Of a stretch of DNA of 64,000 bases, positions 40,072-64,000 are shown piece after piece (the first letter of the stretch is position 1; every line of letters starts with the position of its first letter). The translations under genes and the position numbers were made by a program. The stretch is taken from the NCBI RefSeq assembly GCF_000613885.1, contig NZ_BAJV01000003.1:124001-188000 (forward strand), given 5' to 3'. The notes beneath the pieces were generated by a model, which was given only the letters and a program-made list of their open reading frames with translations, made no database searches and was not told the DNA's origin. Source of the DNA: Asaia prunellae JCM 25354. GTDB lineage: Bacteria > Pseudomonadota > Alphaproteobacteria > Acetobacterales > Acetobacteraceae.

Positions 40072-40086
40072 AAAGGAGAATATTCC

Positions 40087-41553: not shown

Positions 41554-41569
41554 GACAGGAGCTGACTCC

Positions 41570-42691: not shown

Positions 42692-42701
42692 ACTCCATCC
42701 C

Positions 42702-42725: not shown

Positions 42726-42748
42726 AGGCCTGACACTAAGGAAAAACC

Positions 42749-43138
42749 ATGCCGCTATTGCATTTTCATGTTGTCGAAGGGCGAAGCGAGGCTGAAATCA
42801 AAGCGATGCTCGATGCTGCGCATGAAGCCATGCTCGAAGTATTCGAAGTACCCCGTGGTGACCGCTATCAGATCGTCTCGGAGCACAAGAAGACTCACCT
42901 GATTGTCGAGGATACAGGTCTCGATATTCCGAGAACAGACAAGGTTCTTGTGCTGCAGATGTTCAGCAGGCCAAGAGGCGAAGCCAAGAATGCAGCCTTT
43001 TATCAACGCCTGACCGAGCGGCTGCAGAAAGAGTGCGGTATTGCGCCTTCGGATGTCATGGTCTCTGTCGTCGAGAATGAGGATGCGCATTGGTCCTTTG
43101 GCCATGGTCGTGCCCAGTTCCTGACTGGAGAGCTGTAG
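42749..43138 (+). CDS. Tautomerase-family protein (MSAD-like)
   Basis: 129 residues. After processing, the N-terminal proline (MPLLHFHVVEGRSEAEIKAMLDAAHEAM) would be the catalytic base. VFEVPRGDRYQIVSEHKK, the LVLQMFSRPRG segment and VSVVENEDAHWSFGHGRAQF match malonate-semialdehyde-decarboxylase-like tautomerases. Malonate semialdehyde is the product of the DKGP aldolase step in inositol breakdown, so such an enzyme fits the locus: it could turn it into acetaldehyde in place of IolA, which is absent here. That is an inference. Confidence 0.82.
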   Translation: MPLLHFHVVEGRSEAEIKAMLDAAHEAMLEVFEVPRGDRYQIVSEHKKTHLIVEDTGLDIPRTDKVLVLQMFSRPRGEAKNAAFYQRLTERLQKECGIAPSDVMVSVVENEDAHWSFGHGRAQFLTGEL

Positions 43139-43240
43139 AGCATGCCCGATCATTCATGCGTTGTGCTTATCGGAGCGGCTGCGTGTCTCCCCTGAAAGGC
43201 ATGTGGTCATCCTCCCTTATCTGCCTCTGAAGAGAGCGTC

Positions 43241-50592: not shown

Positions 50593-51633
50593 TCAGCTGA
50601 GGTTTTCCGGCGTAACAAGGCGAAATTTCGGGGCTTCAAATCCTATAAGGGAGGGGATGATTCCGAGTTTCTGCAAACAGAGATGAAGGGACAGCCCTGC
50701 CTGGGTTTCCGGGTTCTGGTCGATTGCATAGGCCATGGTGCCTTCTGTCAGGCAGAGACGTGTGACAGGATTGACCTCGTGGCCCACCCAGCAGAGCTGA
50801 CGTGTTGTGTGGCGACGCAGAACATCGCCAATACGCAGATTATCGCCACCTGCAGTATAGACGCCTACGAGATCGGGATGATCGATAATGGCCTGATGAA
50901 GGAGTCTGGCAGCTTCTTCCGGGTCATCATGATCGAACAGAACCTCGCGAAGGACATGAATGGGTTCTGATCTGGTGGCGAGGTATTCTGAAAATCCGTC
51001 AATACGCTCGCGATGATTGGCGTATGCCATGGAATGGCACAGGGCGATCAGTGCACCAGGGCGCTGTACCAGAGTGCGCGTTATGCAAAGGGCCGCCGTA
51101 CGTCCCGCTGCGTGGTTATCGATACCGACATAGGGGAGATCAGGCAGATTGCGGGTAATCAGCTGGATGATCGGAAGCTCTTTTGCTGCCATGTCGCGCA
51201 AGGCGTCCAGAATAGCGGGATGAGCAGGGCAGGCGAGGATCAATGCGGCTCTGCGATGCGGCGCATGGCGTATGCGGGAGACGAAATCAGCGATATCGTT
51301 TTCCCTGACGAAGCTGCGATGAATGACAATATCCTTGCCCAGTGAGGCGGCGAGCCGCTCGAAAGCTGTGCTGAGCCGTGTGTAGAAAAGGGTTTCGGGG
51401 CGTACCAGCAGCACATCAATACGCAAAACACCCTGATGGAGTGATGGCAGACTCGGAAAATAATCAAGATCGCGGGCCACACTCAATATACGGCGGCAGG
51501 TCTCGGGTCGGACGTTCCCGCGGTTATTCAAAGCGCGCTCAACAGTCGCTGTACCTACCCCTGCCAGAGCTGCAATGTCGCGGAGTGTTGCCCGTTTTCG
51601 GCGCGGTGTTTCCCCGGTCTGTATTTCGCTCAT
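50593..51633 (-). CDS. LacI-family transcriptional regulator 1
   Basis: About 346 residues. The HTH is ATLRDIAALAGVGTATVERALNNRGNVRPETCRRIL, followed by a periplasmic-binding-like effector domain (RIDVLLVRPETLFYTRLSTAFERLA, ALILACPAHPAILDAL, YVGIDNHAAGRTAALCITRTL, LVGVYTAGGDNLRIGDVL). The VERAL variant of VSRVL is also seen in regulators of sugar and cyclitol genes. It is divergent from the three-subunit dehydrogenase at 51834 and probably controls it. ATG at 51633 or 51648 may be the start. Confidence 0.85.
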   Translation of the reverse strand: MSEIQTGETPRRKRATLRDIAALAGVGTATVERALNNRGNVRPETCRRILSVARDLDYFPSLPSLHQGVLRIDVLLVRPETLFYTRLSTAFERLAASLGKDIVIHRSFVRENDIADFVSRIRHAPHRRAALILACPAHPAILDALRDMAAKELPIIQLITRNLPDLPYVGIDNHAAGRTAALCITRTLVQRPGALIALCHSMAYANHRERIDGFSEYLATRSEPIHVLREVLFDHDDPEEAARLLHQAIIDHPDLVGVYTAGGDNLRIGDVLRRHTTRQLCWVGHEVNPVTRLCLTEGTMAYAIDQNPETQAGLSLHLCLQKLGIIPSLIGFEAPKFRLVTPENLS

Positions 51634-51725
51634 GATCAGCGTCCTCATCTCCCGTGATGAGATCAGATCATTACGGTGATCGTCCGTGCCTCATCCTCTC
51701 CTGTAGAGTAGCGCCTAATGCAGCG

Positions 51726-51747: not shown

Positions 51748-51833
51748 ACGGCTCAGGCAATACTGTTTCTGATCTGTCTTTGCGTCATATCAGGGATCGA
51801 AAAAAGCATGAAGAAGTCGTGCAGAGGCAAGTA

Positions 51834-52367
51834 ATGATGAGAACAACCAGACGGCGTTTGCTTGGCTATGGCGTAGCTTTCGTTCCTTTGTGTCTGATGG
51901 GTGGTGTATCAGGCCCGTCCTGGGCACTCACGGAAAAAGAGAAAGGTTGCCCACCGGATTTTCTGGCTATCTCAGCCATATTAACCGCATCGCCCGAGCT
52001 GAATCCAATAATGGCACCGCGTGTCTGGCACGCGCTCATCACCAAAGATGACGCGTTTATGGCCCGCTACCGCAGATTATCTGATGAAATGGCGGCGCAC
52101 CGAATCAGGAGCTGGCCTGATTATGAGGCGTCCGGTCTGTCAGCGCAGAAGGAAATCCATAGCATTGCTGTCGCTGTGGTTGGTGCCTGGTATCTGGGGC
52201 GGGTTGGGGAGGTTCTTCCCCGGTCCGAGATCAATACGCCTGCTTTCATTACCTATGAAGGCGCTCTGATGTGGCGTTCCACGCGCGATGTCACAGTCAT
52301 TCCGACCTATGCGCGTGGTGGCCCGGGTTTCTGGGCCGAAGCCCCATCTTCAGTAAAAACGGACTGA
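51834..52367 (+). CDS. Membrane-bound sugar/polyol dehydrogenase, small subunit (Tat)
   Basis: About 177 residues. A Tat leader (MMRTTRRRLLGYGVAFVPLCLMGGVSGPSWA) marks export in folded form. The mature part (FLAISAILTASPELNPIMAPRVWHALI...IHSIAVAVVGAWYLGRVGEV, ALMWRSTRDVTVIPTYARGGPGFWAEAP) matches small subunits of fructose, sorbitol and related FAD dehydrogenases of acetic acid bacteria. It is the chaperone-like partner that carries the large subunit across the membrane. AGAGG precedes ATG 51834. Start of a three-gene operon. Confidence 0.88.
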   Translation: MMRTTRRRLLGYGVAFVPLCLMGGVSGPSWALTEKEKGCPPDFLAISAILTASPELNPIMAPRVWHALITKDDAFMARYRRLSDEMAAHRIRSWPDYEASGLSAQKEIHSIAVAVVGAWYLGRVGEVLPRSEINTPAFITYEGALMWRSTRDVTVIPTYARGGPGFWAEAPSSVKTD

Positions 52368-52374
52368 CCGTATC

Positions 52375-53985
52375 ATGACCCAAACTGACTATGATGCCGA
52401 TGTGATTGTTGTCGGCTCCGGTGTGATCGGCAGTCTCGCTGCACATCATCTGGCGAAGAACGGCAAATCGGTCATTATCCTTGAGGCAGGTACGCGCGTG
52501 CCGCGCTGGAAGATCGTCGAGAGTTTTCGCGAATGCGGCAATGTGAGCACCGATGCTGGCAATCGCAATCAGCCTTATCCGAATGAACCCTGGGCACCAA
52601 GTTCGTTTGTGCCGGATTATATCACCAATCACGGGCCGATCGACTATATACCGGGCATGCTGCGGATGGTGGGTGGTACCACATGGCATTGGGGTGGCGC
52701 CTGCTGGCGTCTTCTCCCCAATGATTTTCACCTGAAATCGCTTTATGGTGTGGGGCGCGACTGGCCGATTTCCTATGACGATCTCGAGCCGTTCTATCAT
52801 CAGGTCGAAATCGAGATGGGCGTTTCAGGTGATGATACCGCCGATTATTCCGGACAGAATGGCGGGGCTTTTCCACCACGTCAGGCGCCTTACCCTGTCA
52901 GACCACAGGCGCTTGGCTATTTCAGTCAGCGCTTCCGTGATCGTGTCGCCGTGGGTGGTTATTCTTTTACCTATCAGCCTAATGGAAGGGCGACAGATCC
53001 TTACGAGGAGCGTCCTGCTTGTGTCGGCAATAATAACTGCTCGCCTGTTTGCCCGATTGGTGCGCAATACAGCGGTGACCGTCATGCGACAAAGGCAGAG
53101 CGTGCAGGCGCAAAACTGATCAGTGATGCCACGGTCTATCGGCTTGAGAAAACACCTGATGGCAAGCGTATTGCTGCAGTACACTATTACACGCCCGATA
53201 AGCGTTCTGTTCGTCTGACCGCGCGCAAGGTACTGGTTGCGGCCCATGCGCTCGAAACGCCGCGTCTTATGCTGTTGTCAGATGTCGGTAATTCATCCGG
53301 TATGGTCGGGCGAAATCTCATGGATCATAATGCCTTTTCCCTGGCCATGATTGCCGATGAGCCGATGTGGTCAGGGCGCGGGCCGGTACAGCAGGGCGAT
53401 GTGCTCAAATGGCGCGATGGCAGTTTCAGGCAAAAGCACGGTTGCATACGTCATGAAGTCGGTAATTTTGTCGGCAATGTGCAAATTACAGAGCGGCTTC
53501 TGTCCCAGGGCGTGATTGGCCCCGAACTGGACGAAAAAATACGGCATATGGCAGCGCGATGGGTCTTTATGGACTCTAATATTGAAATGCTGCCCGAGCC
53601 GACAAACCGCATGAGCCTGAGTGCCAGCAAGCGTGATTTCTACGGTCTTCCGCTTATGGATATCTATTATGATGTCAATGATTACGCGCGTGCAGCTGGC
53701 AACGTGATCAGAGAGGATTATGCGAATTTTCTGAAGCTGCTCGGTGGCGAAATCTTTGATCAGAATCTCAGCCTCTGGGAGAATCGTGATCACCCCATGG
53801 GTACGGTTATCATGGGCAACGATCCGCGTGATTCCGTTGTCAATCACGAAGGGCGCAGCCACGATCACGATAACCTCTTCATTGCGACGACCGGCATCAT
53901 GCCCGCAGCCTCAGTGGTCAATCCGACTCTGACCGGATGTGCACTGTCGCTGCGTTCCGCCTCGATCATGCTGAAGGAGATCTGA
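52375..53985 (+). CDS. Membrane-bound sugar/polyol dehydrogenase, FAD (GMC) large subunit
   Basis: 536 residues, GMC family. FAD site DADVIVVGSGVIGSLAAHHLAKNG and HWGGACWRLLPNDF; an iron-sulfur-type cysteine group CVGNNNCSPVCP, as in fructose and sorbitol dehydrogenase large subunits; DHNAFS and near the end DHPMGTVIMGNDPRDSVVNHEGRSHDHDNLFIATTGIMPAASVVNPTLT (active-site His/Asn region). It has no leader of its own and rides the small subunit. Substrate cannot be read from sequence; the neighbours suggest a sugar, polyol or cyclitol. Confidence 0.93.
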   Translation: MTQTDYDADVIVVGSGVIGSLAAHHLAKNGKSVIILEAGTRVPRWKIVESFRECGNVSTDAGNRNQPYPNEPWAPSSFVPDYITNHGPIDYIPGMLRMVGGTTWHWGGACWRLLPNDFHLKSLYGVGRDWPISYDDLEPFYHQVEIEMGVSGDDTADYSGQNGGAFPPRQAPYPVRPQALGYFSQRFRDRVAVGGYSFTYQPNGRATDPYEERPACVGNNNCSPVCPIGAQYSGDRHATKAERAGAKLISDATVYRLEKTPDGKRIAAVHYYTPDKRSVRLTARKVLVAAHALETPRLMLLSDVGNSSGMVGRNLMDHNAFSLAMIADEPMWSGRGPVQQGDVLKWRDGSFRQKHGCIRHEVGNFVGNVQITERLLSQGVIGPELDEKIRHMAARWVFMDSNIEMLPEPTNRMSLSASKRDFYGLPLMDIYYDVNDYARAAGNVIREDYANFLKLLGGEIFDQNLSLWENRDHPMGTVIMGNDPRDSVVNHEGRSHDHDNLFIATTGIMPAASVVNPTLTGCALSLRSASIMLKEI

Positions 53986-53988
53986 GCC

Positions 53989-55406
53989 ATGCATCGCTCT
54001 CTCCATCATGCCATGACATCAGGCATCACTCTGGCTGTTGTGCTGCTGTTTTCTCCCGCCGTGAAGGCAAACGGTCAGGCCCTGATACAGCGCGGTGCCT
54101 ATCTCGCCCGGGCCGCTGATTGCGTGGCCTGTCATACCAGACCCGGAGGTGCGGAATTTGCCGGAGGATACGGCATAAAATCGCCTCTGGGCGTGATCTA
54201 TTCCAGTAATATTACCCCGTCGCAGGCGCATGGTATAGGCGGATGGTCTGAAGCAGCTTTTGCCGCTGCCGTACGTGAAGGAAAATCAGCGGACGGACAT
54301 CGTCTCTATCCGGCCATGCCCTATGATTCCTATGCGGGTATGACCGACGACGATATCCACGCTCTCTATGTCTATGTGACGACGCAGATCACACCCGTCG
54401 ATCAAGCGGTGGGTCCGGTCACGGCGCTGCATTTCCCGTACAACATGCGTAGCCTGATGCGTGTGTGGAACTGGATGTATCTCGACAAGGGCCGGTTTGC
54501 GCCGCGTCCCGGTGAGACACCGCTTCAGTCACGTGGGCGCTATCTGGTCGAGACTGTCGCCCATTGTGGCACCTGCCATACGCCACGCAATTTCATGATG
54601 GCGACGAAATCCGGCCACAAGCTGGAGGGCGCATCCCTTGGCGGCTGGTACGCACCGGATATTGCAGCCGGTGAGAACGGGCCGCTTGCATCATGGCGTG
54701 ATAACGAAATCATGGCCTATCTGCGCGATGGGCATGCGCGCGACAGGGGAGTGGCGGCTGGCCCGATGGGAGAAGCTGTCGAGCATTCCCTGCGCTATCT
54801 GAGTGAGCCGGATCTTGCGGCGATTACCGCGTTTCTGCGGGAGCAGAAACGGCGTGTTCAGCCGCACCATCGGGTCGATACTGCCGTGTCTGTCTCGCGG
54901 ATCTATGACGTCGATTCAGAACAGGCTCGCGCAACGCGCGATCTGGCCCGTCAGCAACGTAATGCAGATCCACGCCCGTATGCTGACCGACGCAATTATC
55001 GCGACATTGAAGGAGGTGCGGCGCTTTACATGGCTGCCTGTGCTTCCTGTCATCAGCTTGATGGTTCTGGCACGGCAGATGATTTCTACCCTTCGCTCCG
55101 CAAGAGCGGGACGGTCAGGGCATCACGGTCGAGTAATCTTGTCATGACCATAGTGGCGGGTGTGCATCGTAACGGTGCCGATCACAAAGCTTCATGCCTG
55201 CCTTTCGGCATGATCTGACAGACCGGCAGATTTTGGCACTTGTCCAGTTCGTTACGCATCGCCTTGCGGGAAGTGAAACGACATTGACCGAGGCTGAGAT
55301 TACGAAATTACGTCATTTCGATACCGAGGATTTTCCGGCCCAGGCTCTCCCGGCAGGAAGCGCATCCCTGAACATGAAAAGCGAAAAACAGACGCAGACA
55401 CAATAA
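53989..55406 (+). CDS. Membrane-bound dehydrogenase, tri-haem cytochrome c subunit, frameshifted
   Basis: Leader HAMTSGITLAVVLLFSPAVKA, then three haem c sites: CVACH (Cys45), CGTCH (Cys193) and CASCH (Cys351), about 472 residues in all. It passes electrons from the FAD subunit to ubiquinone. Near the end the frame breaks at about 55189; AAA-GGC instead of AAA-GC gives HKGFMPAFRHDLTDRQILALVQFVTHRLAG and a stop at 55406, the normal C-terminus including the last Met ligand region. Follows the large subunit by 3 bases. Confidence 0.93.
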
Positions 55407-55422
55407 GCGAGCTTTATCCTGC

Positions 55423-56435
55423 CTAGACTGTTTCGCGTGTATGCACGCTTAGCGGGATGAGGGGGCCATCCAGAGGCGCAGGTGCGCGTCCCAGATGATG
55501 ACTGAGTGTCGAAAGCGCCGTTCTTGCTTCCAGCATGGGGTTCTGGTCCAGAACCAGATCGATTACACCTGATTTGAGCAGCTCCGCGCGATGCGGGGTC
55601 AGCTCATGGGTGATGAAGATCAGTCTGTCCGAGAGACCGAGTTTCTCAAGAAGGCGGGCAATCGCATCGGCGCCTGTAGAGAAATGATAGATGCCGACAA
55701 TATCGCGATGCTCCTGCAACAGGGCATGAACAGCATCTGCTGCGCGGTCTTCGTTCTCGAGGCATTCCTGAGCAGGCGTCGCATAAAGTGCAGCATAGCG
55801 TTCATCAAGCGCCTGCATGAAACCGGCATAGCGCTGCTGGTGGCCGATATAATGCATTGTGCCAGCAATCAAGGCGACCCTGCCGTACGCGGGCCGAGCA
55901 GGCGCCCCATCATGTCAGCGGCAATACGCCCGGCGCGATGATTGTCAGAGCCGATATAGGCCATGCGATTGGGAGAGGTGATGTCCGAGGCAATCGTGAC
56001 GATTGGCAGTTTCTGCCCGGCATCGGTAACGGCCTGACGGATTGCAGGATGGTCGGGCAGGCAGAGAATGAGCCCGTCATAATCGCGTGCGAGCTGACGG
56101 ATCAGCGTTGCGGAACGCTCCGGATGAGCAATGGGTGAATGATGCTCGAAGCAGGCGATATTCTGCTCCCGATAAGCGGGTATGATTCTTCTGAAGGCTT
56201 CCTGCAGTGCCGCATGAAACGGATTGCCGGGAGGTTGTGTCACGACGGCGATCCGGGCCAGTCGTGCGTGCAGCGCGACGAGTCTGCGCCCATCGCCAAG
56301 CGCGCGTGCCGCTTCGAGCACGACCCGTTCCTTTGCCAGACGAACACCGCCACGGCCGTTGATGACGCGATCAACCGTTGCAGTCGAAACCCCGGAATGG
56401 CGGGCTATTTCCAGTATCGTGGCGCGTTGAGACAT
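55423..56435 (-). CDS. LacI-family transcriptional regulator 2, frameshifted
   Basis: HTH ATILEIARHSGVSTATVDRVINGRGGVRLAKERVVLEAARAL, then RIAVVTQPPGNPFHAALQEAFRRI, LILCLPDHPAIRQAV and YIGSDNHRAGRIAADMMGRLLGPR. The frame breaks near 55882; one base (ACG-GCC or ACG-GGC, then AGG) gives GPRTGRVALIAGTMHYIGHQQRYAGFM and continues to LIFITHELTPHRAELLKSGVIDLVLDQNPMLEARTAL. About 337 residues. The same VDR variant in the hinge helix suggests close relation to LacI-1. It is divergent from the iolE-like gene at 56571 and convergent with the cytochrome. Confidence 0.85.
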
Positions 56436-56486
56436 GAAAGATCCAACGGTTATGTGATGTTATCCATGTGATCTATCTCAATAATC

Positions 56487-56530
56487 TGATGCGAACACAT
56501 CAATTATGCGCGTGTCGGACAGGGTGTCCG
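56487..56530 (+). promoter_or_regulatory. Dyads in the LacI-2 / iolE-like divergent promoter
   Basis: TGATG (56487-56491) and CATCA (56498-56502) form a dyad TGATG-N6-CATCA. A second, CGGACA (56516-56521) / TGTCCG (56525-56530), lies 14 bases beyond. One may be the operator of LacI-2. Confidence 0.4.
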
Positions 56531-56570
56531 GACCTAGCCTGAGGGCATCGACAGAATGCAGGAGCAGGCT

Positions 56571-57497
56571 ATGAACCATAAGGGCAAGATGCCGTACGGG
56601 GTGAGGCTGGGGTGCAGTCCACTCTCCTGGACAAATGATGTTCTTGAAGATCTTGGTGATGAAACACCGCTCGCCCAGTGTCTGGGTGAAATGGCAAAAG
56701 CAGGGTATGCCGGTACTGAACTCGGGCGGAAATACCCGCGTACAGCGCAGGCCCTTGCACCAATCTTGCAGGAACATGGCTTGGCTCTGGCTTCCGGCTG
56801 GTATTCCGGCCAGCTGGCTGATCGCTCTGTTGACGAGGAATGGAGTGAGGTGGTCAGCCATGCCCAGCTTCTTCGGGCTCTTGGGTGCAATACCATGGTC
56901 TATGGCGAGTGCGGTGCCATGACTCCCTCGGCCTCGCCCCTGGACGAGAAAATGTCCCGCCGGCTTATCCTTTCCAGTGACGCGATGACGTCCTACGCAA
57001 CCCGTCTGGCAGCATTCGATGCACGTCTGCGTAACGAATATGGCATCAGACTGGCTTATCACCATCACCTCATGATGGTCGCGGAAACCTTTCAGGAAAT
57101 CAGTCAGCTTTTTGATGCGCTTTCTGCTGACGTGGGTCTGCTGCTGGATACGGGTCATGCCATGGCCGCAGGTTTTGATTATCGTCGCCTGATCGACCGT
57201 TACAGCGCGCGTATCTGCCATATCCATCTCAAGGATGTTCGTCCTGCCGTTCTGGAACAGGTGCGTGCCCAGGATATGAGTTTTAATGCGGCCGTGCGTG
57301 CTGGCATGTTCACCGTTCCGGGTGATGGTTGTGTCGATTTCAGGCCGCTCGCCGAATTTGTGGTTCAGAGCGGCTATCAGGGCTGGATGGTGGTCGAGGC
57401 CGAGCAGGATCCAGCCAAGGCACCGCCTTTTGCGGCTGTGACCCGTGCCCGTCAGGTGGTCGAATCCTGTTTTGCCAATGCCATGACAGCGGTCTGA
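56571..57497 (+). CDS. IolE-like TIM-barrel dehydratase/isomerase
   Basis: 308 residues, paralogue of IolE: GVRLGCSPLSWTNDVLEDL, AGTELGRKYPRT, ASGWYSGQLADRSV, IRLAYHHHLMMVAETFQEI, GLLLDTGHAMAAGF, RICHIHLKDVRP, GMFTVPGDGCVDFRPLAEFV and MVVEAEQDPAKA. The metal ligands and the HHH motif are kept, so it should be an active inosose-dehydratase-like enzyme. AGGAG lies 7 bases before ATG 56571. It opens the second cyclitol-type cluster. Confidence 0.85.
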   Translation: MNHKGKMPYGVRLGCSPLSWTNDVLEDLGDETPLAQCLGEMAKAGYAGTELGRKYPRTAQALAPILQEHGLALASGWYSGQLADRSVDEEWSEVVSHAQLLRALGCNTMVYGECGAMTPSASPLDEKMSRRLILSSDAMTSYATRLAAFDARLRNEYGIRLAYHHHLMMVAETFQEISQLFDALSADVGLLLDTGHAMAAGFDYRRLIDRYSARICHIHLKDVRPAVLEQVRAQDMSFNAAVRAGMFTVPGDGCVDFRPLAEFVVQSGYQGWMVVEAEQDPAKAPPFAAVTRARQVVESCFANAMTAV

Positions 57498-57615
57498 GAG
57501 ACCTGTCTGTCAGGGTGAATTCTTTGACCGGATATCGGGAAGTGTCCCGATTACAGAAAATGCAATGCGTGGCCCGGTTGGAGGAGATCGGGTCCCACAT
57601 TCCAGGATGATCACG

Positions 57616-58791
57616 ATGAAGAAGAAGCAGCTCAATATTGGTCTGATCGGATCAGGTTTCATGGGGCAGGCGCATGCCGACGCCTATCGTCGTGCTGCCA
57701 TGCTGTACCGCAATCTCCCGGCAGTGCCGCATCTTGCTATGCTGGCCGATGCCACGCCGGAACTGGCTGAAAATGCCGCTCGTCGCTTTGGCTTTGAGCG
57801 TTCGACGGGTGACTGGCGCGCATTGGTCAATGACCCTGATATCGATGTGGTCGATATTACTTCGCCCAACCTGTTTCATAAGGAAATGGCGCTGGAGGCG
57901 ATTGCGGCTGGCAAACATGTCTATTGCGAAAAGCCGCTTGCCCTGAGCGCCGAGGACGCTTCTGAAATGACCCGTGCCGCCCGGAAAGCAGGCGTAAAAA
58001 CCATGGTGGCATTCAACAACGTCAAGACACCGGCAGCGCTCTATGCCAGACAGATTATCGAGCGTGGAGATATCGGGCGTCCTACACGGTTCCGGGCCTG
58101 GTTCGATCAGGGATTTTACAATGATCCGAATCTGCCTTTTTCCTGGCGTCTGAGGCGGAGCGAGGCCGGTTCCGGCGCGCTGGGTGATCTCGGTTCTCAC
58201 GTGATTGCGGTTGGACAGTTCCTGATGGGAGATATCACTGCCACGATCGCACAAAGCCAGACGATGTTTCGACAGAGACCCGTGCCCGAGAGCGGATCCG
58301 GCTATGGCGCAACGATCGGTAAAAACGCAGCCCTAGCCGATGTCGAAAATGAAGACCAGATTCAGGCGCTGGTACAGTTTGCTTCAGGGGCCGGAGGGAC
58401 GATCGAGGCCTCCCGTATCGCGGCGGGCAAGATTTTCGGTGTATATTGGGAAGTCTCGGGCACAGAGGGGACTCTCATCATGGACGGAGAGCGGTTCAAC
58501 GAACTCAAGCTCTATCGTTTTGGTGACGAAAAATCCGATCGCGGCTTTCGTACTTTGCTCGTTGGCAGTCAGGTACCGCAATTCTCTGCATTTTTTGGCT
58601 TTGATTTTGGTGGCGGCGGTCTCGGATATTTTGATGTGAAAGTCATCGAAGTGCATGACCTCATTACCGGAATCATGTCCGATGCGGATTGTTTTCCGGC
58701 TTTTGATTTTGGTCTGCGTAATCAGCAAATCATGGATGCCATGGAGGCTTCTCTCCAGAGCCGGAGCTGGCAGTCTCTTCCATCCGTATAA
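57616..58791 (+). CDS. Gfo/Idh/MocA oxidoreductase A
   Basis: About 391 residues. NIGLIGSGFMGQAHADAYRR, DITSPNLFHKEMALEAIAAGKHVYCEKPLALSAEDASEM, FNNVKTPAALYARQIIE, GSGALGDLGSHVIAVGQFLMG and VSGTEGTLIMDGERFNELKLYRFGD. It resembles the oxidoreductase at 41570 over its length, so the two loci share a duplicated enzyme. ATG at 57616 or 57607; AGG lies 9 bases before the former. It probably oxidises a sugar or cyclitol C-OH with NAD. Confidence 0.86.
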   Translation: MKKKQLNIGLIGSGFMGQAHADAYRRAAMLYRNLPAVPHLAMLADATPELAENAARRFGFERSTGDWRALVNDPDIDVVDITSPNLFHKEMALEAIAAGKHVYCEKPLALSAEDASEMTRAARKAGVKTMVAFNNVKTPAALYARQIIERGDIGRPTRFRAWFDQGFYNDPNLPFSWRLRRSEAGSGALGDLGSHVIAVGQFLMGDITATIAQSQTMFRQRPVPESGSGYGATIGKNAALADVENEDQIQALVQFASGAGGTIEASRIAAGKIFGVYWEVSGTEGTLIMDGERFNELKLYRFGDEKSDRGFRTLLVGSQVPQFSAFFGFDFGGGGLGYFDVKVIEVHDLITGIMSDADCFPAFDFGLRNQQIMDAMEASLQSRSWQSLPSV

Positions 58792-58842
58792 ATTCTGTTC
58801 TGGATATCCGGCACCATATCATCCTGAGAGGGAGTGAGAAAA

Positions 58843-59858
58843 ATGCCTTTTCCTTCTGCTTTACCTGAACCGGATCGTCTCGATCCTGCCAGTATTCCCT
58901 CCCTCAGATGGGGGGTGATTGGTCCGGGCTGGATCGCCGAGCGTTTTGTAATGGCGGTACAGCGTTTTACCCGCCAGAAGATTATGGGGGTTGAGTCTCG
59001 TGATGCTGCGCGCGCGTCGGAATTTGCGCGTCGGTTCGCGATCCCTCACGCGTTCGATGGAGGGATGAGCGATCATTCTGAAATTGATGCGGTTTATATA
59101 GCGACGCCTCATCCCTTTCACTTTGACATGGCCAGGCGTGCCCTTGAATCGGGCAAACCCGTTCTGGTTGAAAAACCGATCTGTGTTTCGGCAGTGGAAC
59201 TGGAAGCTCTTATTGTACTGGCCAGAAAACACGATGTGTTTCTGATGGAGGCTACTGGACAGATTTTCTGCCCAAATTCTCGGTCCTGCGAAAGTTATTG
59301 CGGGATCGAGCAATCGGTGAAGTGACCAGTATCCTTGCCGATCATGGTGAATTTTTCCCACCCGATCACCGTATCATGCGCGCTGATCTGGGAGGGGGGC
59401 CTATGCTGGATCTCGGGACCTATGTGGTGGGACTGGCGACCGGCATTCTGGGGCGTCCTGATCATGTCATGGCTCAGACCATTCCCGCGCAAACCGGGGT
59501 GGATGGTCAGACGGGCATGATACTGCACTACCGTAAAGGCGCGCAGGCAGTTCTGCATACGACGCTTTTGTCCCACACGCCCTGTCAGGCGGTTATCACC
59601 GGAAGGGAGGGTATGATCACGATAGCGGGTAAATTCTTCACGCCCGGCCCTTTCGTGGTGCGAGCGAACGACCTTTCTACTCATCTTGTTTTCGACGAGC
59701 CATGCTCTTCCTATGACGGCCTTCATTATCAGGTCGAGCATATGGCCTGGTGTATCGGACAGGGGCTGAAACAATCTCCTGTCCGATCCCTTCCGGCGTC
59801 GTTGCTGGCGCTGGAAACGATGGATCGTGCACGCGAAGCCGGGCGTCTGTTCCGGTAA
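58843..59858 (+). CDS. Gfo/Idh/MocA oxidoreductase B, frameshifted
   Basis: RWGVIGPGWIAERFVMAVQRF (cofactor site), AVYIATPHPFHFDMARRALESGKPVLVEKPICVSAVELEALI, then a break near 59254. One C (GCT-ACC-TGG) restores EATWTDFLPKFSVLRKLLRD and the frame goes on with AIGEVTSILADHGEFFPPDHRIM, GGGPMLDLGTYVVGLATGILG and the C-terminus at 59858. About 338 residues. This group (AAAERF-like start, ATPHPFH) resembles dihydrodiol/xylose-dehydrogenase-like members. GGAG stands 8 bases before ATG 58843. Cotranscribed with its neighbours. Confidence 0.83.
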
Positions 59859-59886
59859 TTATGACCTCTCACGGGAGAGTGACGAA

Positions 59887-60888
59887 GTGACAAAACTAGC
59901 CTTGTTCGGTGCTGGCCGTATCGGCCAGGTCCATGCGCGAAACCTGATGGCCATGCAGGATATGAAACTGGTCGCAATTGCTGATCCTGTTCCGTCGCCT
60001 GGTCGTGAAGATCTGCTGGCTCGCAGTCAGGCACGACTGAGTGACGCAGAGGCTGTTTTCGCTGATCCTGAAATTGATGCCTATCTGATTGCGAGTCCGA
60101 CCGACACGCATGAATGGCTGCTGCGTCAGGCTGCGCGTACCGGCAAACCTGTGTTCTGTGAAAAGCCCGTAAGCCTTGATTTCCGGAAGGTGATTGATAT
60201 TGCCCGTGAAATCGGGTCTGCGGGTAATGCTGTCATGCTCGGCTTTCAGCGTCGTTACGATCCGGATTTCCTGCATGTAAAGGAGGAAATTGCCTCTGGT
60301 CGCTCAGGGAAAGTGCAGCATATCGTGATGCATACACGCGACCCATCCCCTCCGCCTGTCAGTTATGTGAAATCCTCAGGTGGTCTGTTTCGCGATCAGG
60401 CCATTCATGATTTTGACATGACGCGCTATCTGCTCGGCGAGGAGATCGTGTCGGTTTCTGCGACCGGGGCCTGCCTGATTGATCCTGCCATAGGCGAGGC
60501 GGGTGATATCGACACCGCCATGATCACGCTGCGCTCGGAAAGTGGCCGTCTGGTTCAGATGATCAACGCCCGACATGCCGCTTTTGGTTATGATCAGAGG
60601 CTTGAGGCTGTCTGTGAAAAGCGGGTTTTTTATGTTGCCAATCAACCGGCCACGAATTTCATAAGTGCGGATATTCAGGGTTTCACGTCATCCCGGCCCA
60701 TGAGTGATTTCATTGCCCGGTTTGCGGAAGCTTATCGTGCTGAAATGGACGCTTTTCGTGCCCTGATCCAGCAGGGAAAGCCACCGCTTGCCACAATGCG
60801 TGATGGAGTAGAGGCGCAAAGACTGGCCGAGGCGGCGACCTTATCCCTGGAGTTGTCCAGACCTGTTGCTGTTTCGATGGTCGATTAA
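59887..60888 (+). CDS. Inositol-2-dehydrogenase-like oxidoreductase C
   Basis: 333 residues from GTG at 59887, preceded by GGGAGAG. TKLALFGAGRIGQVHARNLM, YLIASPTDTHEWLLRQAARTGKPVFCEKPVSLD, LGFQRRYDPDFLHVKEEI, GGLFRDQAIHDFDMTRYLLGEEI (Asp/His pair) and a C-terminal GVEAQRLAEAATLSLELSRPV. It is nearer to classical IolG proteins than to oxidoreductases A and B. Last gene of the run before the convergent AraC gene. Confidence 0.85.
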   Translation: MTKLALFGAGRIGQVHARNLMAMQDMKLVAIADPVPSPGREDLLARSQARLSDAEAVFADPEIDAYLIASPTDTHEWLLRQAARTGKPVFCEKPVSLDFRKVIDIAREIGSAGNAVMLGFQRRYDPDFLHVKEEIASGRSGKVQHIVMHTRDPSPPPVSYVKSSGGLFRDQAIHDFDMTRYLLGEEIVSVSATGACLIDPAIGEAGDIDTAMITLRSESGRLVQMINARHAAFGYDQRLEAVCEKRVFYVANQPATNFISADIQGFTSSRPMSDFIARFAEAYRAEMDAFRALIQQGKPPLATMRDGVEAQRLAEAATLSLELSRPVAVSMVD

Positions 60889-61056
60889 TGCCATTGTCCC
60901 GGCATAAGGAAGAGCGGTATCAGCAGCGGTACGCTGTTGAGTCTTTGATTTTGTCAGGCGGTCGGTCTGCGCAGACAAATAGCGTTATTGTTTGCCTAGC
61001 AGGAGCCTCCTGTCTTTCGGGCACAAGCTGATCCGGTAACTGAGCCGGTATATATT

Positions 61057-61926
61057 CTAGAAAAACAGGGTGCTGTGGCGCTTGCGGAATGCTGAAGGTG
61101 TTTCTCCATGCAAGCGCCGAAAGTGCCGGTTGAAGAGAGCCAGGTTTGAATAGCCAGCCTCTCCGGCCACAATGGTGATGGAGGTCACGCCGCCGATCAG
61201 GCGTGTGCAGGCATAACCGATACGGAGTCGTATCAGATAACTGCTGATTGTCGATCTCATATGGCATTTGAACAGACGCTGCAGCGCCGATACACTCATG
61301 CAGGCAAGTCCAGCCAGCGTCTCCATCCGTATGGGTTCCCGATAGGCGCTATGCAGATGTGCGAGAACGCGACCCAGTCGTTTGTCCTGCTCAAGACTGA
61401 GAACGGGTGCGGTAGATTCTGGCAGGATAGGACGCCATTCTTCGCTTTGGCTCAGCAGCGCCAGAAGGTCCAGCATGAGGGCCAGGCGATGAGCAGGAGA
61501 GGCATCCTGCATCTGCATCATCAGGTTCCGCGCCCCGTGTCTGATAGACGTTCCGAATTCTATGCCCTGTCCTGCATGCGCAAGAAGATTATGGAGCTTG
61601 CCGAATTCCGGAAAGAGACTGATCAGGGATTTTACCCAATCAAGCGTAAAATGACAGACGAGCGCTCGATGAGAGCCTGGCGAAAGTGGGGAGCCTTCCG
61701 ACGCCCAGCTATGCAACAGATTGGGTCCGATGAGAGCGAGGTCGCCGTCATCATAAGGGTCGACTGCTTCGCCGATATAGCGATGGCCTGCACTGTTCAG
61801 GGTAAGTGTCAGCTCGTATTCGGGGTGGTAATGCCATTCGAAAGGTATGCCATGAGGCAGCTGGCGATCGAGAAATGCCCAGGATGTTTCCAGATGGGGG
61901 ATGATTGTCTCGAAAAACGGCTTCAT
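61057..61926 (-). CDS. AraC-family transcriptional regulator
   Basis: 289 residues. An N-terminal cupin (LPHGIPFEWHYHPEYELTLTL, DDGDLALIGPNLLHSW) senses a ligand. The C-terminal double HTH is LAHLHSAYREPIRMETLAGLACMSVSALQRLFKCHM...ITIVAGEAGYSNLALFNRHFRRLHGETPSAFRKRH. It is divergent from the PhyH-like gene and probably controls it. Tandem half-sites lie between. Confidence 0.88.
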   Translation of the reverse strand: MKPFFETIIPHLETSWAFLDRQLPHGIPFEWHYHPEYELTLTLNSAGHRYIGEAVDPYDDGDLALIGPNLLHSWASEGSPLSPGSHRALVCHFTLDWVKSLISLFPEFGKLHNLLAHAGQGIEFGTSIRHGARNLMMQMQDASPAHRLALMLDLLALLSQSEEWRPILPESTAPVLSLEQDKRLGRVLAHLHSAYREPIRMETLAGLACMSVSALQRLFKCHMRSTISSYLIRLRIGYACTRLIGGVTSITIVAGEAGYSNLALFNRHFRRLHGETPSAFRKRHSTLFF

Positions 61927-62007
61927 GTCACGCCTGTTCTTTCAACGCCGCAATAGTATCAATCTAAGCCTTTTTCGATACAGATCCCCAAGATCAGGTT
62001 AATGTAA

Positions 62008-62037
62008 AGTGATAATCACTCAATTTGGAGTGATATT
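62008..62037 (+). promoter_or_regulatory. Tandem AraC-type half-sites before the PhyH-like gene
   Basis: AGTGATAAT (62008-62016) and AGTGATATT (62029-62037) are direct repeats exactly 21 bases apart, as for AraC-family sites. The first is also half of a perfect 13-base palindrome AGTGATAATCACT (62008-62020). The sites abut the ATG at 62042. Confidence 0.65.
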
Positions 62038-62041
62038 GGTT

Positions 62042-63016
62042 ATGAAAAATGATATTATGATGCGGGAAGAGGGACTCTATGGCGGCCATGGAGACCATCC
62101 CGGTGTGCGCGGCAATACGACACAGCTGAAAGATATCAGGAAAAAGCTTCCCCTGCGTGTTCTGAGTCAGGCAGACTGGGAACACTGGGTGACCAAAGGC
62201 TTCGTTATTATCCGCAACGCGGCCCCGCCTGAAAAGGTCGAACCCGTTGTAAGCATGCTCTGGGAGTTCCAGGAGATGGATCCCGGTCGGCCGGAGACCT
62301 GGCATATCAGGGATCGTCGACCGCATCGCATGACCGAGTTGAACGGTGCAGGGATGGTCGAGGTCTATAATCATCAAAGTCTCTGGGATATTCGCCAGTT
62401 ACCCAGGATCTACGACGTCTTCGTTGATATCTGGGACAGAGAGGATCTATGGGTTGCGCTGGATCGGGCGAATTTGAGTCCACCCAATGCGGAGGCTCGC
62501 AGAGCTAACAGAACAAAGGGATTTATTCATTTTGATATCGATCCATCTCAGCGACCGCTACCTGTCTCTGTGCAGGGCATTCTGTCCCTGAAAAAGCAGG
62601 GAGGAAAAATCGGTGGTTTCCAGTGTGTGCCAGGGGTTTTTGCCGAGATCGAGACGTGGTGGGACAAACAGCCTCCCGGTTCCAACCCGTTCAAACCTGA
62701 TGTCACCGGCTATGATATTGTCAATTGTGACATGGAACCTGGGGATCTGCTTCTTTTCAACAGTCTTCTTGCTCACGGTGTGAGGCCGAATATCAGCGAA
62801 CACGACGTGCGTATGGCGCAATATGTATCGATGTTTCCGGCTGATTACGAGAACGAGCGTCTCAGAGACGACCGGATTCGTGTCTGGAGGGAGCAGGGGA
62901 CCCCGGCAGGGGACGGTTTTCCCGGCGATCCCCGTAATTACGAGGCAACGCATTATCCTGTTGCCACTCTTGATTCTCTGGGCCGGAAGCTGCTTGGACT
63001 TGATCCTTGGAAATGA
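62042..63016 (+). CDS. Phytanoyl-CoA dioxygenase (PhyH)-like protein
   Basis: About 324 residues. A non-haem Fe(II)/2-oxoglutarate oxygenase fold: WEHWVTKGFVIIRNAAPPEKVEPVV, the metal HxD in KGFIHFDIDPSQRPLPVSVQGILSL, GGFQCVPGVFAEIETWW and the distal His with MEPGDLLLFNSLLAHGVRPN, then RMAQYVSMFPAD. The family hydroxylates or demethylates small molecules. The start is uncertain: ATG at 62042 adjoins the regulator sites; ATG at 62057 is an alternative. In a cyclitol cluster it might act on an O-methylated inositol; this is only an inference. Confidence 0.82.
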   Translation: MKNDIMMREEGLYGGHGDHPGVRGNTTQLKDIRKKLPLRVLSQADWEHWVTKGFVIIRNAAPPEKVEPVVSMLWEFQEMDPGRPETWHIRDRRPHRMTELNGAGMVEVYNHQSLWDIRQLPRIYDVFVDIWDREDLWVALDRANLSPPNAEARRANRTKGFIHFDIDPSQRPLPVSVQGILSLKKQGGKIGGFQCVPGVFAEIETWWDKQPPGSNPFKPDVTGYDIVNCDMEPGDLLLFNSLLAHGVRPNISEHDVRMAQYVSMFPADYENERLRDDRIRVWREQGTPAGDGFPGDPRNYEATHYPVATLDSLGRKLLGLDPWK

Positions 63017-63066
63017 TGGATCCTGTCTTTCGTGCTTGCCTGTCTTTTTAACTGTTTCATGAATGG

Positions 63067-63105
63067 AGCGCATTAGATCATGCTGAATTCATGACCTAAT
63101 GCGCT
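63067..63105 (+). other. Large intercistronic dyad
   Basis: AGCGCATTAG (63067-63076) pairs with CTAATGCGCT (63096-63105), and inside it TCATG (63078-63082) pairs with CATGA (63090-63094), with one A-C mismatch and loop CTGAATT. No T run follows. Function unknown. Confidence 0.75.
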
Positions 63106-63163
63106 GTCTGATGTGAGGTTAGGCTCTCTCAAGCCGTATGAAACGGATATGGAGGGTCACATC

Positions 63164-63493
63164 ATGTCTGGGAAAGCTCATACTGCCCAGAGGGCTTTTG
63201 GCGATATGGCGCCAGATCTGGCGCGTTATACGGATCAGATCCTGTTCGACGAGGTCTGGGAGCGGCCCGGTCTGACGCCACGTAAGCGGTGTATGGTGAC
63301 CATCACCTGTCTGATTGCGCTTTATCGCGGCAATGAGCTGGGTTTTCATCTGCGCAAAGCACTGAACACCGGTGTGACGAAAGATGAGATCATCGAGATC
63401 ATTACCCATCTGGCTTTCTACTCAGGCTGGCCCACAGCCTCTTCTGCGCTCGCCATTGCGAGGCAGGTTTTCGCAGACGAAAAGGAATCCTGA
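63164..63493 (+). CDS. Carboxymuconolactone-decarboxylase-family protein
   Basis: 109 residues: [91 protein letters not shown]. The pattern of Glu and His ([10 protein letters not shown]) without a CxxC motif marks the gamma-carboxymuconolactone-decarboxylase type rather than the AhpD peroxidase type. GGAGGG lies 8 bases before ATG 63164; an upstream start at 63113 has none. Relatives decarboxylate lactones or fuse to hydrolases. It is followed after 2 bases by the SDR. Confidence 0.85.
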
Positions 63494-63495
63494 TC

Positions 63496-64000
63496 ATGAC
63501 ACAGAATATTGCCGGAAAAGTTGTTGTCATTACCGGCGCGAGCAGCGGCCTTGGTGAGGCCGTGGCGCGCCGTCTGGTGGCAGAAGGTGCAAGGATTGTG
63601 ATTGGTGCACGGCGCATGGATCGACTTGAAGCACTGGCGGACTCGCTGGGCCTCGAACGTTCGGCGATCGTGAAGACCGATGTCAGCCAGGTGGATCAGG
63701 TCCAGGCGCTCGTTGACCGGGCCATCACTCTGTATGATCGTGTGGACGTGCTGATCAACAATGCCGGTCTTATGCCATCCTCACCGCTTGAAAAGCGGGA
63801 TATTGCTGCCTGGGACGCAATGATCGACATCAACCTCAAAGGTACTCTTTATGGTATTGCCGCCGTGCTACCGCAGATGCAGCGTCAGAAGAGCGGACAT
63901 ATCATCAATGTGGCCTCTGTTGCCGGTCACAAGGTCGGGCCGGGTGGCGCGGTTTATTCCGCTACCAAAACTGCTGTACGCGTCCTTTCAGAAGGACTTC
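63496..64000 (+). CDS. SDR-family oxidoreductase, 3' partial
   Basis: 168 residues visible, cut by the window end. [33 protein letters not shown] (NADP-type Rossmann site), [50 protein letters not shown] (active-site Ser, Tyr, Lys). It begins 2 bases after the CMD-family gene and is surely cotranscribed. Confidence 0.9.

What the first reader, a model, noticed from the sequence alone, without database searches (positions are those of the whole stretch)
51834..64000. Candidate undescribed cyclitol or sugar pathway joining a periplasmic dehydrogenase to IolE-like and PhyH-like enzymes
In 12 kb there are a three-subunit FAD/cytochrome dehydrogenase, a paralogue of inosose dehydratase, three Gfo/Idh/MocA oxidoreductases, a PhyH-like oxygenase, a CMD-family protein and an SDR, with two LacI and one AraC regulators. 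The IolE-like protein keeps the HHH and GDGC motifs of IolE, but there is no IolB, IolC or IolD here, so the route must differ from inositol breakdown or feed into it. One model is outer oxidation of a cyclitol or sugar by the dehydrogenase, then uptake and dehydration; another is use of O-methyl-inositols with PhyH removing the methyl group.
Basis: partly seen in the sequence, partly recalled or inferred. Interest (0 to 1): 0.8.

Follow-up and report, generated by a model that had tools for sequence, protein, structure and literature searches.

The report
Accessory inositol cassette plus unrelated neighbours
The stretch is not one new pathway but four separate gene cassettes side by side, one of which looks like an add-on set for breaking down a further inositol-type sugar alcohol into the ordinary inositol pathway encoded nearby; it is mostly ordinary, with one open question about a membrane enzyme that may oxidise inositols outside the cell.

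Summary
The genes are there, but they do not form one pathway. The genus is Asaia. Nine Asaia genomes split the stretch into four units. (1) lacI1-sldS-gmcL-cytC, a FAD/triheme-cytochrome dehydrogenase: 6 of 9; published in A. bogorensis, by similarity only, as sorbitol dehydrogenase. (2) lacI2-iolE2-gfoC-gfoD-gfoE: iolE2 in 7 of 9, the Gfo genes in 5. All five have relatives in lacI-iolG-iolE-Gfo-Gfo cassettes on Rhizobium, Agrobacterium and Thioclava plasmids, four of five such loci beside core iol genes. (3) araC-phyH: this genome alone; elsewhere mostly a stand-alone pair. (4) cmd-sdr-lysR: shared backbone. An iol operon with all four core genes lies 18-23 kb upstream of iolE2. Best reading: unit 2 is an accessory module that oxidises and dehydrates another inositol isomer or derivative for IolD/B/C. 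PhyH probably has no part in it. Whether unit 1 supplies the keto-inositol is open. For: orthologues sit at iol clusters in two other genera, and every Asaia iolE2 comes with unit 1 or the Gfo genes. Against: the closest foreign relative (70%) stands alone with its own LacI. Three genes carry one-base gaps, probably sequencing errors.

The parts
50593..51648 (-). lacI1: LacI-family regulator, divergent from unit 1
   Evidence: PF00356 49 bits, PF13407 82 bits; travels with sldS-gmcL-cytC in 6 of 9 Asaia loci
51655..51682 (.). conserved operator-like motif TGATGARATCAGATCATNANNRTGATCG between lacI1 and sldS
   Evidence: fits all 6 Asaia genomes with unit 1; G008 departs at several positions
51780..52367 (+). 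sldS: small subunit of FAD/cytochrome c dehydrogenase, Tat-like signal
   Evidence: PF12318 FAD-SLDH 125 bits; RRR-L motif read from the sequence
52375..53985 (+). gmcL: FAD (GMC) large subunit
   Evidence: PF05199/PF00732; PDB fructose dehydrogenase 461 bits, glucose dehydrogenase 445 bits; tree
53989..55218 (+). cytC: triheme cytochrome c subunit; 3' end off-frame, one base short near 55190
   Evidence: PF00034; frame against relatives
55423..56435 (-). lacI2: LacI-family regulator of unit 2, split by a one-base gap near 55880
   Evidence: N part PF00356/PF13407; to LacIs of the Agrobacterium, Rhizobium and Thioclava cassettes 41-45% (N part) and 35-39% (C part) identical; one frame in relatives
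56487..56502 (.). operator-like site TGATGCGAACACATCA between lacI2 and iolE2
   Evidence: identical in 7 of 7 Asaia genomes with iolE2, altered in G192; the only site in the own genome at up to 2 mismatches
56556..57497 (+). iolE2: second inosose-dehydratase-family protein
   Evidence: TIGR04379 333.7 bits, cut-off 290; all 5 motifs checked are present; in a 15-row group with 100/100 support
57565..58791 (+). gfoC: Gfo/Idh/MocA dehydrogenase of the 4GQA / scyllo-inositol dehydrogenase / levoglucosan dehydrogenase branch
   Evidence: 4gqa 598.5 bits, 6a3f 318.6, 5ya8 307.7; 72% to the A. larrymoorei cassette gene
58834..59858 (+). gfoD: Gfo/Idh/MocA protein, split by a one-base gap near 59252
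   Evidence: PF01408 and PF22725; frame against relatives
59827..60888 (+). gfoE: IolG-type inositol 2-dehydrogenase
   Evidence: TIGR04380 356.1 bits, cut-off 355; 54% to IolG of the A. larrymoorei cassette
33299..44077 (+). iol operon upstream: iolC (kinase/aldolase), iolD, iolE1, iolB, gfoA, MFS, gfoB, tautomerase, TIM-barrel protein
   Evidence: NCBIfam scores above cut-off for iolC, D, E, B; gfoA 520.1 against 540, just below, for the myo/chiro-inositol dehydrogenase model; Pfam for the last two
61057..63016 (.). araC-phyH pair (araC 61057-61926 minus, phyH 62009-63016 plus); judged not part of the pathway
   Evidence: only in this genome among 9 Asaia loci; contexts elsewhere
63113..64000 (+). 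cmd-sdr (sdr continues past the window): backbone, judged not part of the pathway
   Evidence: kept with lysR in Asaia genomes that lack the module

Best explanation
The interval is four independent cassettes in a row. The one that matters, lacI2-iolE2-gfoC-gfoD-gfoE, is an accessory cyclitol module. Its NAD(H)-dependent Gfo/Idh/MocA enzymes (an IolG type, a scyllo-inositol/levoglucosan-dehydrogenase type and a third) oxidise or re-reduce a ring carbon of an inositol isomer or derivative. IolE2 then removes water (or another beta leaving group) from the keto-inositol, giving an intermediate that IolD, IolB and IolC of the upstream iol operon finish. LacI2 controls it from the 56487-56502 site. 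The adjoining lacI1-SLC set is a periplasm-facing FAD/cytochrome c polyol or cyclitol dehydrogenase with its own regulator. araC-phyH is an insertion seen in this genome only, and cmd-sdr a neighbour shared by the genus. Shown here: family assignments, modular presence and absence, the match to rhizobial cassettes, operator conservation. Inferred: substrates, cofactor, reaction order, regulator targets.
For: IolE2 and gfoE pass curated IolE and IolG cut-offs. Each of the five genes has a relative in the A. larrymoorei cassette: iolE2 60%, gfoC 72%, gfoE 54%, gfoD parts 39-41%, lacI2 parts 38-41%. That cassette lies beside rpiR, iolB, a second iolE, iolD and iolC in A. larrymoorei, A. fabrum Kin001 and A. 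pusense; in Thioclava GXIMD2076 it follows iolC-iolD-iolE. These four loci keep both IolE types within a few kb, and the IolE of the cassette falls, with 100/100 support, in a group apart from the core IolE of the same organisms, so IolE2 is unlikely to be a mere spare copy. Presence and absence in 9 Asaia loci separates the units. The 56487-56502 site is identical in 7 of 7 genomes with iolE2. The phyH context argues against its inclusion.
Against: No activity or expression data exist. gfoE passes the IolG cut-off by about one bit, and gfoC is far below the levoglucosan dehydrogenase cut-off (364.9 against 650). Two of the seven Asaia genomes with iolE2 (G149, G228) lack gfoC-D-E at the locus, and the IolG-model search shows no further gfoE- or gfoC-grade match in them (gfoD was not sought genome-wide), so the module is not an obligate set. 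Gene order differs: iolG leads in the rhizobial cassettes and is last here. The R. sullae cassette shows no iolB, C or D within 9 kb. In A. fabrum L-11 an IolE of this group is the only iolE shown beside iolC-D-B, so this type can serve as core IolE; and seven other IolE rows that stand apart from iolD fall outside the group, so an accessory position is not unique to it. The site at 51655-51670 is only 3 mismatches from the lacI2 site, so units 1 and 2 may share regulation after all.
Confidence: 0.68

Rival explanations
1. Units 1 and 2 form one two-compartment route: the FAD/cytochrome c dehydrogenase oxidises an inositol at the outer face of the membrane, the keto-inositol is taken up (perhaps by the iol MFS carrier) and IolE2 dehydrates it. 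The cytoplasmic Gfo enzymes are an alternative to the dehydrogenase.
For: In Asaia every genome with iolE2 (7 of 9) has the dehydrogenase (6) or gfoC-E (5) or both; G149 and G228 have only the dehydrogenase, G250 only the Gfo genes. In two other genera orthologues (55-62%) sit between an IolT-like MFS gene and rpiR-iolC (G079, G117). G079 carries iolC-D-E-B but no IolG-grade match; its one weak match is a 76% orthologue of an unlinked gene that A. bogorensis also has. A conserved site before sldS resembles the lacI2 site.
Against: The dehydrogenase has its own LacI. The closest relative in the plasmid collection (Neorhizobium, 70%) is a stand-alone lacI-S-L-C set. G008 has the dehydrogenase without iolE2. 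The G079/G117 proteins lie in another supported group (97/98), not with the Asaia proteins, and G079 is the only genome held for its genus. G079 also has three membrane PQQ dehydrogenase matches, two over the cut-off, one of these on the same contig. G117 has no good iolD match and its cluster is cut by a contig end. In its genus only 2 of 49 genomes have a match of this kind at E<=1e-140; the other, G256, shows no iol core genes in the 11 kb upstream held, and its contig ends right after the gene. Across 249 family genomes 8 of 12 with such a dehydrogenase (540 bits or more) have an IolE match against 84 of 237 others (p 0.036, not corrected for relatedness, 4 of the 12 being Asaia). The palindromic core before sldS is a loose pattern: 33 matches at up to 3 mismatches in the window.
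Confidence: 0.28
2. Unit 1 is a D-sorbitol (polyol) dehydrogenase of the usual acetic acid bacterium type with no tie to inositol.
For: Published for A. bogorensis as SLDH (Asbog_00352-00354) from subunit structure and sequence (PMC4596401, passages); G149 has exactly the published chromosome length and only one such gene at E<=1e-60. PF12318 is the FAD-SLDH family. Stand-alone sets with a LacI occur in Neorhizobium and Ketogulonicigenium.
Against: No sorbitol dehydrogenase reference sequence was available to test orthology; the published label rests on similarity; iol-linked orthologues in two genera.
Confidence: 0.4
3. Unit 2 uses O-methyl-inositols: Gfo enzymes oxidise a carbon from which the methyl ether is a beta leaving group and IolE2 eliminates methanol, as LgdB1 eliminates from 3-keto-levoglucosan; no PhyH is needed.
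For: gfoC is of the levoglucosan/scyllo-inositol dehydrogenase branch. IolE2 coexists with a core IolE in four plasmid loci and in 7 Asaia genomes. Oxidation-elimination-hydration-reduction is published for levoglucosan (PMC7676230: search listing; PMC10066097: passages).
Against: No direct evidence for a methylated substrate; IolE2 keeps the same five motifs as IolE1.
Confidence: 0.18
4. The first reader's single pathway, including PhyH as a demethylase together with CMD and SDR.
For: Physical closeness. Among the 80 phyH relatives five loci hold a distant Gfo/Idh relative (24-37% identity), in one of them (L018) next to araC, and one (L081, Flavobacterium) also a distant GMC relative.
Against: phyH-araC in 1 of 9 Asaia loci, phyH in 1 of 150 family genomes; 0 of 80 relatives have an iolE hit at E<=1e-8 in the DNA held, which reaches 10 kb each side at most; cmd-sdr kept where the module is absent.
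Confidence: 0.05
5. The module is a decaying remnant in this strain, as lacI2, gfoD and cytC are frame-shifted.
For: One-base gaps against all aligned relatives; partial losses in G149, G228 and G192 show that the region decays in the genus.
Against: Frame breaks occur elsewhere in this genome: of three PQQ dehydrogenase genes two are in two pieces and the third matches only from model position 199, while G149 has each in one piece. iolE2, gfoC, gfoE and gmcL are open, and the operator is intact. Sequencing error is the likelier cause.
Confidence: 0.12

Closest known systems
lacI-iolG-iolE-Gfo-Gfo cassettes on Rhizobium/Agrobacterium/Thioclava plasmids
   Same: same five gene families, relatives gene by gene, beside core iol genes in four of the five loci
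   Different: iolG is first there and last here; here iolC-D-E-B lie 18-23 kb away with unrelated genes between; no description of the cassette was found in searches
Klebsiella/Pantoea iolE-Gfo sets with LacI
   Same: iolE2 and gfoC relatives in tandem, further Gfo gene(s) and a LacI close by
   Different: no iol operon annotated within the 9 kb shown on each side (gene tables incomplete); gfoE relatives only 36-37% identical
Corynebacterium glutamicum iol2 dehydrogenase cluster oxiC-cg3390-oxiD-oxiE (PMC9603128, passages)
   Same: extra inositol dehydrogenases that widen use to scyllo- and D-chiro-inositol
   Different: not aligned here; that cg3390 is a TIM-barrel isomerase is recalled, not from a call
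Flavoprotein-cytochrome c dehydrogenases of acetic acid bacteria (FDH, SLDH, GADH, 2-KGDH; PMC9171043, passages)
   Same: three subunits, FAD plus triheme cytochrome c, PF12318 small subunit
   Different: large subunit lies outside the FDH/GDH group; the inositol dehydrogenase listed in that review's table is PQQ-dependent
Levoglucosan pathway LgdA-LgdB1-LgdB2-LgdC (PMC10066097, passages)
   Same: Gfo/Idh/MocA dehydrogenases with PF01261 TIM-barrel proteins
   Different: gfoC is far below the LgdA-type cut-off; IolE2 is an IolE by model; LgdB proteins were not compared

Membership tests
myo-inosose-2 dehydratase (IolE, TIGR04379) | score at or above curated cut-off 290 | tested here: met
   333.7 bits
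myo-inosose-2 dehydratase (IolE, TIGR04379) | YHHH, LDTGH, H(I/V)HxK(D/N), TVPGDG, EAEQDP motifs shared with IolE1 (list chosen here by eye) | tested here: met
   all five in iolE2 and iolE1 of the window; 6 of 8 rows checked have all five, the A. larrymoorei core IolE has three and the Klebsiella row two, so the list is not diagnostic
myo-inosose-2 dehydratase (IolE, TIGR04379) | dehydration of scyllo-inosose | not testable with these tools
   needs an assay
core iol operon member | encoded with iolB, iolC and iolD | tested here: not met
   iolE2 stands 18-23 kb from iolC-D-B; away from them in 7 of 7 Asaia loci with iolE2
inositol 2-dehydrogenase IolG (TIGR04380) | score at or above 355 | tested here: met
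   gfoE 356.1, marginal; 363.5 in G085, 363.9 in G250, 359.9 in G252
levoglucosan dehydrogenase (NF052479) | score at or above 650 | tested here: not met
   gfoC 364.9
Pl-scyllo-IDH-like subfamily of Gfo/Idh/MocA | catalytic Lys-Asp-His aligned with K106/D191/H195 of 5YA8 | tested here: met
   EKP and GDLGxH aligned in gfoC (residues from PMC5969746, passages)
Pl-scyllo-IDH-like subfamily of Gfo/Idh/MocA | loop His318 reaching the neighbouring active site | tested here: inconclusive
   a GGGH stretch of 5YA8 aligns with GGGG in gfoC, but which letter is H318 was not checked; 4GQA also lacks the swapped loop
rhizobial lacI-iolG-iolE-Gfo-Gfo cassette | relatives of all five genes | tested here: met
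   38-72% identity to the A. larrymoorei genes
rhizobial lacI-iolG-iolE-Gfo-Gfo cassette | gene order with iolG first | tested here: not met
   iolG-type gfoE is last here and first in L225, L226, L227, L231
flavoprotein-cytochrome c membrane dehydrogenase | PF12318 small subunit, GMC subunit and cytochrome c subunit in one operon | tested here: met
   gene order
fructose dehydrogenase (FDH) | large subunit groups with G. japonicus FDH | tested here: not met
   tree: FDH groups with another gene of Asaia G085
D-sorbitol dehydrogenase (SLDH) | orthology to characterised SldL, or sorbitol oxidation | not tested
   no SldL reference sequence at hand; assigned so in PMC4596401
Fe(II)/2-oxoglutarate dioxygenase (PhyH) | HxD...H iron ligands | tested here: met

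The most novel reading that the evidence does not exclude
The sldS-gmcL-cytC complex is a periplasm-facing FAD/cytochrome c inositol dehydrogenase, a type not in the table of acetic acid bacterial membrane dehydrogenases seen in PMC9171043, that feeds keto-inositol to IolE2 or IolE1 and in some genera (G079) stands in for the cytoplasmic NAD-dependent IolG. Inositol catabolism would then have a respiratory, two-compartment entry interchangeable with the cytoplasmic one.
Probability: 0.27. Interest if true: 0.6.

Novelty: new member of a known kind. Interest (0 to 1): 0.36.

Why it matters
It corrects an over-joined pathway and gives a testable role to a widespread accessory inositol cassette, for which our searches found no description, that coexists with a core iol operon and carries its own IolE; what its substrate is becomes a sharp question. 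If the neighbouring dehydrogenase acts on inositols, acetic acid bacteria would have a second, flavin-based way to oxidise inositol outside the cytoplasm beside the known PQQ enzyme, of use for making rare inositols and inososes.

Tried and rejected
Rejected: one pathway joined by PhyH. Rejected: glucoside 3-dehydrogenase / 3-keto-glycoside route as the main reading; my recollection is that those dehydrogenases use another small-subunit family, whereas this one is PF12318, and gfoC and gfoE score far below the glycoside and disaccharide 3-dehydrogenase models. Rejected: FDH orthology. Weak: family-wide co-occurrence of the dehydrogenase with IolE (p 0.036, uncorrected). Weak: G117 as support, as its iol cluster is cut by a contig end and iolD is not found. 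The structure search placed PhyH near DUF1479/YbiU and gave no substrate. Rhizopine MocC was considered as a relative of IolE (recalled); one search gave papers but no test was run. The VIA-align list is a second look at Foldseek hits, so families absent from it are not excluded. Not tested: LgdB or SldL reference sequences, gfoD genome-wide, iolA.

Rows dropped before counts: the IolE tree used 44 of 48 proteins, four over 560 aa left out; its rows are from hand-chosen loci, the root is a midpoint, and the program warned of long branches. The phyH alignment used 26 of the 30 rows first asked for; L025, L029, L045 and L081 were left out. phyH relatives: the best 80 of 347. AraC count: 57 of 77 loci, 3 of 80 too short to judge. 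GMC tree: 38 rows chosen by hand from the fetched loci, 37 of them by script. Annotated neighbourhoods were read for 19 plasmid hits chosen by hand (two of them, carry no annotation, and one is a second hit type of the same kind of locus).


Full report
WHAT IS THERE. The window is part of contig C36 of a 3.18 Mb genome. One genome of the same genus (G149) is a single contig of 3,198,265 bases, exactly the published chromosome length of Asaia bogorensis NBRC 16594 (PMC4596401, passages), so the genus is taken to be Asaia. Three genes of the interval are each one base shorter than in the Asaia relatives aligned: lacI2 (6 rows), gfoD (3 rows) and cytC (5 rows) (output partly cut). The same genome breaks other genes: of three PQQ dehydrogenase genes two are in two pieces and one matches only in part, while G149 has each in one piece. 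Sequencing error is therefore the likelier cause. An iol operon lies at 33299-44077: iolC, iolD, iolE1 and iolB over their cut-offs, gfoA just under its best model's (520.1 against 540), MFS, gfoB, a tautomerase and a TIM-barrel protein. Its iolC-D-E-B genes are 18-23 kb, and its 3' end 12.5 kb, from iolE2.

FOUR UNITS, NOT ONE. Nine Asaia genomes were compared over this locus by tblastn. lacI1-sldS-gmcL-cytC is present in 6 of 9 (G000, G085, G149, G228, G251, G252). iolE2 is present in 7 of 9 (those six and G250). gfoC-D-E accompanies it in 5 of 7 (G000, G085, G250, G251, and G252, whose contig ends in gfoD with an IolG-grade match on another contig). G149 and G228 have iolE2 without gfoC-E at the locus, and the IolG-model search shows no further gfoE- or gfoC-grade match in them (gfoD was not sought genome-wide). 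G192 keeps only lacI2; G249 has neither unit at the locus. cmd, sdr and lysR are seen in all eight loci whose stretch reaches that far (G252 ends before it); akr in seven of them, G249's stretch ending after lysR. araC-phyH is in the own genome only. G251 is broken by many frame shifts, so its genes were counted from pieces.

THE IOLE2 MODULE. IolE2 scores 333.7 bits against the IolE model (cut-off 290), gfoE 356.1 against IolG (cut-off 355), and gfoC 364.9 against levoglucosan dehydrogenase (cut-off 650). The best solved relatives of gfoC are 4GQA (598.5 bits), 6A3F (318.6) and scyllo-inositol/L-glucose dehydrogenase 5YA8 (307.7) (that 6A3F is levoglucosan dehydrogenase is recalled, its listed name being 'Putative dehydrogenase'). 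The catalytic Lys, Asp and His named in PMC5969746 (passages) align in gfoC. On plasmids the nearest relatives are cassettes of Rhizobium and Agrobacterium (about 25 best rows listed in each). Five lacI-iolG-iolE-Gfo-Gfo cassettes were read. In A. larrymoorei, A. fabrum Kin001 and A. pusense the cassette lies beside rpiR, iolB, a second iolE, iolD and iolC; in Thioclava GXIMD2076 it follows iolC-iolD-iolE; in R. sullae an rpiR follows but no iolB, C or D is annotated in the stretch. Pantoea and Klebsiella hold iolE-Gfo sets with a LacI. Pairwise identities to the A. larrymoorei genes are 60% (iolE2), 72% (gfoC), 54% (gfoE), 39-41% (gfoD parts) and 38-41% (lacI2 parts). In the IolE tree the cassette type falls in a 15-row group with 100/100 support, apart from the core type of the same organisms. 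Two of the 15 carry the label 'core' because iolD is near (Thioclava, A. fabrum L-11), and A. fabrum L-11 shows it as the only iolE beside iolC-D-B. Seven further rows without iolD nearby lie outside the group. So the type can serve as core IolE in one plasmid, but in four plasmid loci and seven Asaia genomes it stands beside a core IolE, which argues for a different substrate.

REGULATION. TGATGCGAACACATCA (56487-56502) between lacI2 and iolE2 is identical in all seven Asaia genomes with iolE2 and altered in G192, which lacks iolE2. It is the only such site in the own genome at up to two mismatches. The lacI1-sldS gap has its own motif (51655-51682), fitting six Asaia genomes, with departures in G008; its palindromic core is a loose pattern, with 33 matches at up to three mismatches in the window. 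The first 16 bases of the motif are three mismatches from the lacI2 site on both strands, and the two recognition helices read TATVERALN and TATVDRVIN (read; that this stretch is the recognition helix is recalled). Related operators and cross-talk are thus possible.

THE DEHYDROGENASE. It is a flavoprotein-cytochrome c complex by family. A. bogorensis Asbog_00352-00354 is called SLDH in print on sequence and subunit grounds; the same table lists a PQQ inositol dehydrogenase (PMC4596401, passages). G149 has one such large subunit at E<=1e-60, at 383 kb, which fits that gene number; the identity of the two is inferred. In the tree the Asaia proteins group with Neorhizobium pNCHU2750b (100/100), apart from FDH, whose nearest kin include another gene of Asaia G085. 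The Neorhizobium set is lacI-S-L-C without iol genes in 15 kb each side. In G079 and G117, of two other genera, orthologues lie between an IolT-like MFS gene and rpiR-iolC, but they fall in another supported group (97/98). G079 has iolC-D-E-B but no IolG-grade match; it is the only genome held of its genus, and it has three membrane PQQ dehydrogenase matches, one of the two over the cut-off on the same contig. G117 lacks a good iolD match. In the genus of G117 2 of 49 genomes have such a gene at E<=1e-140; the other, G256, shows no iol core genes in the upstream DNA held, and its contig ends just after the gene. Over 249 family genomes, 8 of 12 with a 540-bit or better match have an IolE match against 84 of 237 others (p 0.036, not corrected for relatedness). 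The link to inositol is suggestive, not shown.

MECHANISM. Most likely (0.68): accessory cyclitol module feeding IolD/B/C, with the dehydrogenase a separately regulated polyol or cyclitol oxidase. Shown: gene families, modularity, cassette relatives, operator conservation. Inferred: substrates, cofactor, order of steps, regulator targets.

KNOWN OR NEW. Extra inositol dehydrogenases that widen the isomer range are known (C. glutamicum, PMC9603128, passages). A survey of iol clusters (PMC9430895, passages) has no hit for the word beginnings 'paralog', 'copies', 'periplasm' or 'acetobacter' in its main text, but says that many functions are encoded twice in one very large cluster. For the cassette, searches of the open library, and for a flavin-type membrane inositol dehydrogenase, searches, gave no paper that describes it, as far as the listings and the passages read in six papers show (PMC9171043, PMC4596401, PMC9430895, PMC9603128, PMC5969746, PMC10066097). 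No paper was read whole, and most subscription journals are not held. I rate it a new member of a known kind.

CHECK.

Noticed in passing
window 61057-63016; L004-L083: araC-phyH is a compact two-gene unit seen in Proteobacteria, Acidobacteria and Bacteroidota in differing neighbourhoods; the PhyH-like protein is very conserved (65% mean column identity over 26 rows) and of unknown substrate.
   Followed up: partly
L197/L198 (G079): iolC-D-E-B cluster in a genome without an IolG-grade match, headed by MFS and the FAD/cytochrome c dehydrogenase.
   Followed up: partly
L146 (G192) around 15992-17002: lacI2 left as an orphan with an altered operator where iolE2-gfoCDE and the dehydrogenase are absent.
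   Followed up: partly
window 46622-47794: Catalase reading frame matches relatives over only 355 of 390 aa and ends differently, probably another frame error in this assembly.
   Followed up: no
G000:C21:50956-53447, G000:C29:77496-79441: PQQ membrane dehydrogenase genes are split in two in this genome but in one piece in A. bogorensis, a sign of indel errors across the assembly.
   Followed up: partly
L229 15395-19020 (Thioclava GXIMD2076): An FDH-like GMC/cytochrome c/small-subunit set lies about 4 kb from an iolCDE plus accessory iolE-Gfo block; it is not of the Asaia group.
   Followed up: partly
L252 1190-1576 (G256): A relative (63%) of the iol-operon tautomerase lies about 10 kb from the dehydrogenase, on the opposite strand, with no iol core genes in the stretch held.
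   Followed up: no
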